Shown: in pieces, positions 7,083 to 61,677 of the stretch
Position numbering within the stretch: the first letter of the stretch is position 1
Layout of the letters: each line of letters opens with the position of its first letter
NCBI GenBank assembly: GCA_037200985.1
Contig: JBBCGJ010000001.1
Coordinates: 2,580,756 to 2,644,755, forward strand
DNA from: Rhizomicrobium sp.
GTDB taxonomy: Bacteria; Pseudomonadota; Alphaproteobacteria; Micropepsales; Micropepsaceae
DNA: 64,000 nt
Reading direction: 5' to 3'
Program-made: the position numbers and the translations under genes
The notes under the pieces: model-generated
Seen by the model: only the letters and a program-made list of their open reading frames with translations
What the model was told of the DNA's origin: nothing
Databases searched by the model: none

Positions 7083-7227
7083 CCCTCCCCTTGAGGAAGG
7101 GTCGAGATCTGCGAAGCAGATTTCGGGGAGGGGTCCGGCGGCAGGGCTCCACCCCTCTCCGAAAATCTCGCGCGCGCGCTGTCGCTACGCGCCGCTTCGA
7201 TTTTTCGGCCCTCTCTCAAGGGGAGGG
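7083..7227. repeat. Family-1 palindromic repeat, copy A
   Basis: A 145-bp element bounded by CCCTCCCCTTGAG at the left and CTCAAGGGGAGGG at the right. Inside are two further hairpin-forming pieces: AGATCTGC-GAA-GCAGATTT next to CGGGGAGGGG, and a right half with CCCCTCTCCGAAAATCTC and GATTTTTCGG. The whole could fold as a branched cruciform. The same plan is seen at 18628-18757 and 61502-61677, and a short form at 34868-34926. It starts 3 nt after the purA stop and may act as a terminator. Confidence 0.85.
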
Positions 7228-18627: not shown

Positions 18628-18757
18628 CCCTCCCCTTGAGGGAGGGTCGAAATCTGCGAAGCAGATTTCGGGGAGGGGTCGGGCCGCGTGGCTGAACCCC
18701 TCCCCGAAAAATTCTTCGCTCCGCTTCGAATTTTTCGACCCTCCCTCGAGGGGAGGG
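18628..18757. repeat. Family-1 palindromic repeat, copy B
   Basis: A 130-bp element with ends CCCTCCCCTTGAGGGAGGG and CCCTCCCTCGAGGGGAGGG. Its left half holds the hairpin AAATCTGC-GAA-GCAGATTT followed by CGGGGAGGGG. Its right half begins CCCCTCCCCGAAAAATTC and closes with GAATTTTTCG. It is the most regular copy and lies between pal and cpoB, where it could attenuate transcription or stabilise pal mRNA 3' ends (inference). Confidence 0.88.
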
Positions 18758-34675: not shown

Positions 34676-34845
34676 GGCGGACGGACACTGCCCCGCGCGT
34701 CAGGTTAGCGATGCCCAGGGGCCTTAATGGTACTCACCGGGAGCTGTCCCTGGCCAGGATCGTGGTCTTGGTCATATGGCGCCCACCTGCACTTGCAGGC
34801 CCGTGAGGATCCAAACACCAACGGCGATGGCGGTTCCGTCCGCTA
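34676..34845 (+). ncRNA. ssrS: 6S RNA
   Basis: The ~170 nt between zapA and the 5-FCL gene have no open frame and show the 6S plan. A closing stem GCGGACGG (34677-34684) pairs with CCGTCCGC (34836-34843), extended by A-U and C-G pairs after a bulge, around a long partly unpaired body containing GGGAGCTGTCCCTGGCC. A TATATA box at 34667-34672 sits about 8 nt upstream of the stem. 6S RNA mimics open promoter DNA and binds sigma70 polymerase in stationary phase. Position zapA-ssrS-fau is the standard one. Ends are approximate. Confidence 0.82.
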
Positions 34846-34867: not shown

Positions 34868-34926
34868 CTACCCTCCCCTTGAGGGGTTCCCACGCTGGCG
34901 CTAGGAACCCCTCAAGGGGAGGGTAG
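34868..34926. repeat. Family-1 repeat, short copy D: 23-bp perfect hairpin
   Basis: CTACCCTCCCCTTGAGGGGT followed by TCC (34868-34890) pairs without mismatch with 34904-34926 across a 13-nt loop. The arms share CCCTCCCCTTGAG with the longer family-1 elements, but the inner hairpins are missing. It begins about 25 nt after 6S RNA and its right arm ends 10 nt before the folate cyclo-ligase start, so it could end 6S transcription and mask the cyclo-ligase ribosome binding site. Confidence 0.88.
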
Positions 34927-61501: not shown

Positions 61502-61677
61502 CCCTCCCGTTCACGGGAGGGTCGAAAAATTCGGAGCGGCGCGTAGCGACAGCGTGCGCGAGAATTTTTCGGGGAGGGGACAGCGGCGCAGACGGAACTC
61601 TTCCGGAGAGGCTGTCCCCTCCCCGAAATTTGCCTCGCTTCGCGATGCAAATTTCGACCCTCCCGTGAACGGGAGGG
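61502..61677. repeat. Family-1 palindromic repeat, copy C
   Basis: A 176-bp element with ends CCCTCCCGTTCACGGGAGGG and CCCTCCCGTGAACGGGAGGG. Inside, GAAAAATTC/GAATTTTTCGGGGAGGGG and CCCCTCCCCGAAATTTGC/GCAAATTTC form two side hairpins, around a variable centre. The bounding CCCTCCC/GGGAGGG and the CGGGGAGGGG/CCCCTCCCCG core match copies A and B. It lies between rplS and the OafA-type gene. Confidence 0.87.

What the first reader, a model, noticed from the sequence alone, without database searches (positions are those of the whole stretch)
7083..7227. Family of branched palindromic repeats (copies A, B, C and short D)
Four intergenic elements share CCCTCCC...GGGAGGG ends and CGGGGAGGGG/CCCCTCCCCG inner boxes with variable stems. 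Three of them could fold as a cruciform with two side hairpins of different sequence but kept pairing, a sign of selected structure or of a mobile element moved by a transposase in trans.
Basis: seen in the sequence. Interest (0 to 1): 0.5.

Follow-up and report, generated by a model that had tools for sequence, protein, structure and literature searches.

The report
Nuclease-linked triplex palindromes spreading in bacteria
The branched repeats in this window appear to be gene-less copies of a small, so far undescribed kind of mobile DNA whose ends may fold into a three-stranded structure and whose full-size version carries a gene for a DNA-cutting enzyme, which could explain where a common and puzzling class of bacterial repeats comes from.

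Summary
Copies A, B and C are real and far beyond chance; short D shares only the ends. The element is dispersed through the 4.64 Mb genome (20 full-length copies delimited), with side arms that differ but pair.

The RAYT idea fails: no Y1_Tnp match was found. All 3 DUF559 (Vsr/homing-type nuclease) genes found in the genome instead lie in the apex of such an element, each in a different repeat family. Of 123 DUF559 genes tested, 85 have C/T-arm hairpins within 200 bp on both sides (0 of 864 control pairs; 1 of 18 weak paralogues). Within one genus, nuclease clade and flanking-hairpin class agree almost perfectly (7 changes; shuffled mean 22.6).

Beside these genes the inner G-box mirrors the hairpin's purine arm (96 to 3, 56 ties), the signature of the intrastrand triplex motif known as BoxC/PIT/TM in E. 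coli, for which no mobiliser had been reported. A congener shows full, solo-palindrome and empty states at orthologous sites.

Best reading: MITE-like copies of a DUF559-encoding element, spread by nuclease-provoked copying. The association is strong; mobilisation is inferred, and some genomes with many copies lack a matching nuclease.

The parts
7083..7227 (.). Copy A, full-length non-autonomous class-A element
7083..7101 (+). A: left terminal hairpin (one changed base)
7102..7124 (+). A: left side-arm hairpin
7125..7133 (+). A: left G-box GGGGAGGGG, the candidate third strand
7134..7151 (.). A: apex loop; the nuclease gene occupies this position in the gene-bearing copy elsewhere in the genome
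7152..7160 (-). A: right G-box, decayed (CCCCTCTCC)
7161..7208 (+). A: right side-arm hairpin with the GCGCGCGCTGTCGCTACGCGCCGC insert
7209..7227 (+). A: right terminal hairpin (decayed)
18628..18757 (.). Copy B, full-length class-A element; end hairpins 18628-18646 and 18739-18757, arms 18647-18669 and 18706-18738, boxes and apex 18670-18705
61502..61677 (.). Copy C, subtype 2 (ends CCCTCCCGTTCACGGGAGGG, boxes GGGGAGGGGACAGC/GCTGTCCCCTCCCC); end hairpins 61502-61521 and 61658-61677, arms 61522-61570 and 61625-61657, boxes and apex 61571-61624
34871..34923 (.). Copy D: simple inverted repeat with the class-A end sequence, no inner boxes, 31 bp after the 6S RNA match; derivative or relic

Best explanation
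The repeats are non-autonomous (MITE- or REPIN-like) copies of a small mobile element. The gene-bearing form is [end hairpin - side arm - G-box] - DUF559 nuclease gene - [inverted half], about 0.5 kb; the copies in the window are the two halves with an apex of tens of bases instead of the gene. SHOWN: the dispersed family; the nuclease gene at the apex position in all three DUF559 loci found in this genome, each in a different repeat family; the same flanking arrangement in many other bacteria; nuclease clade matching end-hairpin class; mirror symmetry between G-box and purine arm in the wider family, as a purine-motif intrastrand triplex requires; full, solo, empty and re-armed states at orthologous sites; no target-site duplication of 3 bp or more. 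INFERRED: the nuclease recognises its own class of hairpin/triplex, exposed for example in single-stranded DNA at the fork or by supercoiling, and nicks or cuts there; repair then copies an element into the broken site from another copy (homing-like gene conversion), which spreads copies, swaps arms between copies and leaves no transposon-type target duplication; solo palindromes are either the preferred target or what is left after loss. Gene-less copies are moved in trans.
For: 3 of 3 DUF559 genes of the genome sit between inverted half-elements of three different families. Both-sided hairpins at 47 of 70 named and 38 of 53 strong genus/class loci against 0 of 752 and 0 of 112 control pairs; 1 of 18 weak paralogues. 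Nuclease tree against hairpin class: 7 changes for 7 labels, shuffled mean 22.6, 0 of 200 shuffles as low. Class-matched co-occurrence over 37 genomes, after subtracting the nuclease's own ends: A p=0.011, D p=0.0003; mismatched classes 0.08 and 0.18. G-box fits the mirror of the arm 96, the direct repeat 3, tie 56. Site polymorphism against the congener G028, including window copy A, which is a decayed solo palindrome there. Arms or apex changed far more than the flanks in orthologous copies. Invariant E, D, E, H residues in 25 proteins. AlphaFold2 model, pLDDT 87; the only PDB matches with E up to 0.001 are the DUF559 protein 3hrl and two chains of the catalytic domain of homing endonuclease I-Bth0305I; Vsr is at rank 8.
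Against: No cleavage, binding or movement was observed. G034 (146 class-A palindromes), G028 (43) and G004 (34) have no class-A nuclease that I found, so copies persist or spread without a detectable matching gene. Repeat number also rises with genome size (rho 0.43 for A, 0.50 for D), and within the 20 genomes that have any strong DUF559 the matched tests weaken (rank test A p=0.026, D p=0.13). Only three sites are plainly empty in G028 (4417097, 1538563, 1051276), and their junctions are too diverged to give the exact insertion point. The direction of solo/full changes is not polarised. Class A of the window has symmetric arms, so the mirror test says nothing about it. Counts and p values are not corrected for relatedness. 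By my criterion 23 of 70 named and 15 of 53 strong genes lack the hairpin on at least one side. No strain-level insertion was found.
Confidence: 0.65

Rival explanations
1. DUF559 is a host-type nuclease (VSP-like repair, or a resolver of DNA secondary structures) that was captured between repeats; the repeats multiply by replication slippage and template switching alone and the nuclease only processes them.
For: Caulobacter VsrA (DUF559) is reported to cause SOS-inducing damage and is proposed to be a mismatch-repair nuclease (PMC12907096, passages seen). Copies persist where no matching nuclease was found. Vsr is among the fold matches.
Against: A captured host gene should not sit at the same apex position, on its own class of ends, in many distant bacteria nor co-diversify with the class of its ends. 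The weak paralogues lack the arrangement (1 of 18).
Confidence: 0.2
2. Selected RNA structures: terminators, mRNA stabilisers or regulators that were multiplied by selection.
For: Copies are intergenic and several start right after a stop codon; side arms keep pairing; D follows the 6S RNA match.
Against: Rfam at gathering threshold finds only tRNA and 6S in the window. The mirror box has no use in an ordinary RNA hairpin, and purine-motif triplexes are stated not to form in RNA (PMC4666352, passage). Arms change between orthologues and sites are empty or solo in a relative. A nuclease gene in the apex is unexplained.
Confidence: 0.08
3. The gene-bearing DUF559 elements are mobile, but the dispersed gene-less repeats are only their preferred target sites, not their derivatives.
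For: Solo palindromes occur where the relative has a full element and the reverse. Different classes occupy one site in relatives (3082992, class A here and class-C-like in G028; 2464484, subtype 2 here and class A in G034).
Against: Gene-less copies carry both complete halves with arms and boxes in the same order as the gene-bearing copy, more than a target would need.
Confidence: 0.1
4. REP/REPIN elements mobilised by a RAYT.
For: Paired inverted palindromes, intergenic, tens of copies.
Against: No PF01797 match in the single-contig genome while the search rings in 5 of 14 controls; no GTAG or CGTC tag in 20 copies.
Confidence: 0.02

Closest known systems
BoxC / PIT / intrastrand triplex motif (TM, TMECO; Holder et al. 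2015, PMC4666352: abstract, sections 15 and 18 and passages seen)
   Same: C/T-rich hairpin followed by a G-box that can serve as third strand; intergenic; repeated; the G/C-rich motif is reported in more than 260 genomes; in 5 cases in E. coli two motifs lie close as an inverted pair of types A and B
   Different: The authors report never finding remnants of transposases or integrases around TMECO sites; the words endonuclease, Vsr and DUF do not occur in the main text. Here a DUF559 gene lies between inverted motifs
REPIN / RAYT system (PMC3116915, PMC2817692: search listing only)
   Same: Gene-less inverted pairs of palindromes plus a rarer gene-bearing form flanked by the same ends
   Different: The enzyme is a PD-(D/E)XK-type nuclease, not an HUH/Y1 transposase; no GTAG tag
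CGTC REPs (Di Nocera et al. 2013, PMC3733652: abstract and passages seen)
   Same: Palindromic repeats common in alphaproteobacteria; that family is said to lack a dedicated transposase
   Different: No CGTC tag in 20 copies; different sequence
Homing endonucleases of the I-Bth0305I type (PDB 3r3p)
   Same: Fold of the catalytic domain (TMt 0.80-0.81)
   Different: Not in an intron or intein; flanked by palindromes; has gene-less derivatives
DUF559 / Vsr-like proteins: E. coli YcjD, Caulobacter VsrA (PMC12907096, passages seen), N. gonorrhoeae 3hrl
   Same: Same Pfam family; a gonococcal DUF559 gene has related hairpins on both sides by eye, one imperfect; K-12 ycjD has BoxC-like sequence at and beyond its 3' end
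   Different: None was linked to repeats in the passages seen

Membership tests
REPIN/RAYT | Y1/HUH transposase gene in the genome, flanked by the repeats | tested here: not met
   0 matches to PF01797; control rings in 5 of 14
GTAG or CGTC REP | unpaired GTAG or CGTC tag at the foot of the hairpin | tested here: not met
   0 of 20 copies
Intrastrand triplex motif (BoxC/TM) | third block that mirrors the purine strand of the hairpin | tested here: met
   of 210 half-elements beside DUF559 genes (123 loci), 51 symmetric or without A, 4 too short; of the 155 scored 96 mirror, 3 direct, 56 ties. Met for the wider family; class A of the window is symmetric, so uninformative
Intrastrand triplex motif (BoxC/TM) | loops of 1-6 nt as in the ITxF search | tested here: not met
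   side arms between duplex and box are roughly 20-50 nt in the own copies; limit
Intrastrand triplex motif (BoxC/TM) | triplex actually forms | not testable with these tools
   needs CD, NMR or footprinting of these sequences
Classical MITE of a DDE transposase | terminal inverted repeats | tested here: met
Classical MITE of a DDE transposase | target-site duplication | tested here: not met
   no direct repeat of 3-9 bp at the ends in 20 copies; 2-bp identity in 6
DUF559 (PF04480) | profile match over the curated cut-off | tested here: met
   133, 123 and 115 bits against 20.6
Homing endonuclease | fold of a known homing nuclease | tested here: met
   3r3p E 3.1e-04, TMt 0.80
Homing endonuclease | cuts the empty site and is copied into it | not testable with these tools
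   needs an experiment

The most novel reading that the evidence does not exclude
A previously undescribed class of mobile DNA, widespread in bacteria and including the element behind E. coli BoxC, in which a nuclease of about 130 residues spreads itself and gene-less copies by recognising an intrastrand DNA triplex and provoking homing-type repair; each nuclease clade has its own triplex class.
Probability: 0.4. Interest if true: 0.95.

Novelty: categorically new. Interest (0 to 1): 0.84.

Why it matters
BoxC/triplex repeats were found in E. coli in the 1990s and no mobiliser was reported for them (PMC4666352, passages), and DUF559 is still described as of unknown function in Pfam. Linking them would give a very common bacterial repeat an origin, would give a widespread nuclease family a substrate that can be tested at once with short oligonucleotides, and would be a candidate for a biological system that reads a DNA triplex. 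It would also explain the proline- and glycine-rich C-terminal tails of many predicted DUF559 proteins as translated repeat.

Tried and rejected
RAYT/Y1_Tnp as mobiliser: no match in the genome. Rfam at gathering threshold: only tRNA and 6S. First flank test by Smith-Waterman: 41 of 80 loci above the 99th percentile of 379 controls (largest control 64); replaced by the hairpin test because some controls held second copies. A first hairpin test used a profile that ran into the right repeat and so undercounted the downstream side (both sides 14 of 70 and 10 of 54); one search uses the trimmed core. Strain-level empty sites: the S. meliloti Ak57 locus finds 4 of 139 plasmid records with 80% or more of the query; the other three (Sinorhizobium K101, C101, M103) hold the same occupied locus and are identical to each other there. 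E. coli ycjD region: 3330 of 5426 genomes have a place covering 80% or more; I opened 4 hits: one has a TetR and RND efflux genes beside fabI, one a deletion, one a frameshift note, one a longer motif at the end of ycjD; no clean empty site. Gene-size interiors in class-A pairs of G034: none in the listed part, which scored 40 of 115 candidates. Paper searches on CCCTCTCCC, general terms and REP terms gave no report of the link. My statement that no paper links DUF559 or Vsr-like nucleases with palindromic or triplex repeats rests, their listings and the passages that I opened, in an open-access library only. Mistakes: one search placed minus-strand loci reverse-complemented and one search failed for that reason and because of a too narrow pattern; corrected. 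One search is a careless alignment with a placeholder row and was not used. In one search two of 20 copies (3918554, 2371772) had the left half mis-parsed. In one search the G028 end of the 1385964 element was cut too late, so its right-arm identity there is not valid. The search scored only 7 candidates per genome, so its matches are incomplete.

Full report
OBSERVATION. Copies A, B and C are present at the stated places and have the stated anatomy; D has only the end sequence. Six end-type hairpins stand in the window against 0.02 expected. The window lies at 2580756-2644755 of a single 4.64 Mb contig. There, copy A finds at least 71 blastn matches (40 of 116 candidates scored), the box with its leading T 42 hits against 4 for the reversed pattern, and the class-A end palindrome 39 against 0. 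I delimited 20 full-length copies, one of them gene-bearing. No two share an identical left or right arm, though some differ by a single loop base; all 20 right arms and 17 of the 18 correctly parsed left arms fold with z of -2.0 or lower against mononucleotide shuffles, one (2731496) has -0.8. There are two subtypes in which ends and inner boxes change together: CCCTCCCCTTGAGGGAGGG with GGGGAGGGGTC, and CCCTCCCGTTCACGGGAGGG with GGGGAGGGGACAGC.

THE ENZYME. No Y1_Tnp match was found. While reading the copies I saw one whose apex is a gene (1091525-1092008). It is DUF559, PF04480. The genome gives exactly three DUF559 matches, all over the cut-off, and each lies between inverted half-elements, each of another repeat family: class A (box GGGGAGGGGT), class B (ACCTCTCCC..GGGAGAGGT, box GGGTGAGGGC) and class C (CCTCCCCC..GGGGGAGG, box GGAGGGGGC). 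In some congeners the box stands directly before the start codon, where it could serve as ribosome-binding site (L102, L105, L114, L125), and the C-terminal tail of many predicted proteins is read from the right half.

GENERALITY. PF04480 in 61 genomes (own, 36 of the same genus, 24 of other families of the class) gave 87 rows by my count in 37 genomes; 72 of these were held as loci, all 54 rows with E up to 1.5e-25 and 18 of the 33 weaker ones. A scan of named genomes gave the best 80 of 543 relatives of the query, so it is a selected set, from Alpha-, Beta- and Gammaproteobacteria, Planctomycetota, Gastranaerophilales, Dehalococcoidia and others. After removing 4 duplicates, 148 distinct loci remained: 76 named (core scores 97.9 bits or more), 54 strong and 18 weak. 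Loci with less than 200 bp on a side were dropped (6 named, 1 strong). C/T-arm hairpins within 200 bp: upstream 58, downstream 56, both 47 of 70 named; 42, 46 and 38 of 53 strong; 1, 1 and 1 of 18 weak paralogues. Controls in the same loci at least 700 bp away, for the named and the strong set: 29 of 1101 and 10 of 377 single windows; 0 of 752 and 0 of 112 pairs of the same geometry. Of eight further DUF559 loci opened in plasmid and phage records (L283-L290), S. meliloti, Sphingomonas and Pseudanabaena have such hairpins on both sides, N. gonorrhoeae related sequence on both sides by eye (one imperfect), two Azospirillum and one phage contig upstream only, one Sinorhizobium downstream only. 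E. coli K-12 ycjD has BoxC-like sequence at its 3' end and a full palindrome downstream, none upstream. A BoxC-type pattern occurs in 17 of 19 searched genomes or records that hold such loci, with 0 reversed-control hits in all 19 (L282 was not held there).

CO-DIVERSIFICATION. For 40 DUF559 cores of the genus, without the repeat-encoded tail, labels of the flanking hairpin class need 7 changes on the tree for 7 labels (least possible 6); shuffled labels need 22.6 on average, 0 of 200 as low. Three rows had no hairpin and were not counted; the labels were assigned by me from the hairpin sequence; L136, labelled C, falls with class F. Class-matched repeat number is higher in genomes with the matching nuclease: A, 7 genomes with and 30 without, p=0.011; D, 10 and 27, p=0.0003, after subtracting two ends per nuclease; mismatched classes p=0.08 and 0.18. 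G002 is counted under D because its unflanked gene falls in the D clade; without it D gives p=0.0004 before subtraction. Against this: repeat number also correlates with genome size (rho 0.43 and 0.50), and restricted to the 20 genomes with any strong DUF559 the matched tests weaken (rank tests A p=0.026, D p=0.13; presence of two or more copies p=0.044 and 0.043). G034 with 146, G028 with 43 and G004 with 34 class-A palindromes have no class-A nuclease that I found.

STRUCTURE OF THE ENDS. Hairpin plus G-box is the layout of BoxC, also called PIT or intrastrand triplex motif (PMC4666352; abstract, sections 15 and 18 and passages read). A purine-motif triplex needs a third strand that mirrors the purine arm, where a simple repeat would give the direct copy. 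Of 210 half-elements beside 123 DUF559 genes, 51 are uninformative by symmetry and 4 too short; of 155 scored, with A or T accepted opposite A, the mirror fits better in 96, the direct copy in 3, and 56 tie (halves of one locus are not independent, so the binomial p of 5e-25 overstates). The relation holds in arms as different as GGGGAGG, GGGGAGAAG, AGGGAGGGG and AAAGGGGGG. In the window's class A the arm is symmetric, so the triplex there rests on family resemblance, and the side arm takes the place of the second loop.

SITE COMPARISONS. With joined flanks, G028 was the closest of 41 congeneric genomes searched, by identity of the flanks (capped at 7 scored candidates per genome). Own full against nothing in G028: 4417097, 1538563 and 1051276. 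Own full or partial against a solo palindrome: 2841835, window copy A at 2587838 (solo decayed) and 1398071; the reverse, own solo against a full element, at 1667553. Occupied in both: 987412, 989843 and 1385964; there parts of the element differ far more than the flanks (flank identities between 82 of 102 and 96 of 99 columns; left arm of 989843 20 of 32 and right arm 25 of 36; apex of 987412 36 of 68), while other parts are conserved (right arm of 987412 33 of 35; left arm of 1385964 28 of 31 with a compensatory pair). Other class at the same site: 3082992, class A here and class-C-like in G028; 2464484, subtype 2 here and class A in G034, empty in G011 and G004. 1385964 and 2731496 have no element in G022. 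Solo in both: 3159781. Own solo against unrelated sequence in G028: 1590204, 2102181, 2346512, 3118189. The remaining sites were not aligned (2096575, 2599383, 3287972, 2371772, 1091525, 3967179 among them) and are not counted. The ends show A before (18 of 20) and T after (18 of 20) and no duplication of 3 bp or more.

THE NUCLEASE. 25 aligned proteins keep E28, D57, E68, D70, G71 and H74 without exception (L080 numbering). The model (pLDDT 87.2) has three PDB matches with E up to 0.001: 3hrl, a gonococcal DUF559-type protein, and two chains of the catalytic domain of the homing endonuclease I-Bth0305I; E. coli Vsr is at rank 8, among unrelated mitoribosome proteins at similar scores. This suits a nicking or cutting enzyme whose cuts are repaired by copying, but activity on these ends is inferred.

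MECHANISM. Two facts point to nuclease-provoked copying rather than DDE transposition: no target duplication, and change of arms inside orthologous copies, which is what gene conversion between copies would give. The class of ends recognised would be set by the nuclease clade. Whether solo palindromes are targets or remnants is open. The alternative that the nuclease only processes structures that multiply by themselves is the main rival.

NOVELTY. Repeat motif and protein family are both known; their union as one element, with co-diversifying parts, was not found in the held open-access library (listings, and passages of the papers opened). Holder et al. state that they never found remnants of transposases or integrases around TMECO sites. 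In the Caulobacter VsrA paper the words palindrom and transpos do not occur in the main text. Subscription papers were not searchable.

Noticed in passing
window 34682-34839 and 34871-34923: Copy D lies 31 bp after a 6S RNA match and could serve as its terminator hairpin; it has no inner boxes.
   Followed up: partly
window 7161-7208; own genome 956220, 2170953, 2723518, 3656025, 4166491, 177980: A module like GCGCGCACGCTGTCGCTACGCGCCGC is shared between arms of class-A elements and the otherwise different class-C elements, as if arms were exchanged between families.
   Followed up: no
L334, L333 (G028) and flanks of own 3287972: Another inverted repeat (CGCGGAGACGCGGAG..CTCCGCGTG type) occupies the same intergenic sites in the relative and encloses one class-A copy here.
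   Followed up: no
L282 (E. coli K-12, ycjD), L323: ycjD ends in triplex-motif sequence, longer in strain STN0717-11, and has a BoxC-like palindrome between it and fabI, so E. coli may carry a relic of the same element.
   Followed up: partly
L163, L161, L098 and others: C-terminal tails such as PSPxPSPxRGEG of predicted DUF559 proteins are translated from the right triplex motif; the Planctomycetota one is doubled.
   Followed up: no
L284, L356 (Sinorhizobium): The DUF559 gene is flanked on each side by a whole inverted pair of motifs, not only by a half-element.
   Followed up: no
L321 (E. coli FDAARGOS_1302): A TetR regulator and RND efflux genes stand next to fabI where K-12 has ycjD.
   Followed up: no
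G034: 146 class-A palindromes, in the listed part mostly as pairs about 125-145 bp long, with no class-A nuclease found: a genome with a large orphan population.
   Followed up: partly
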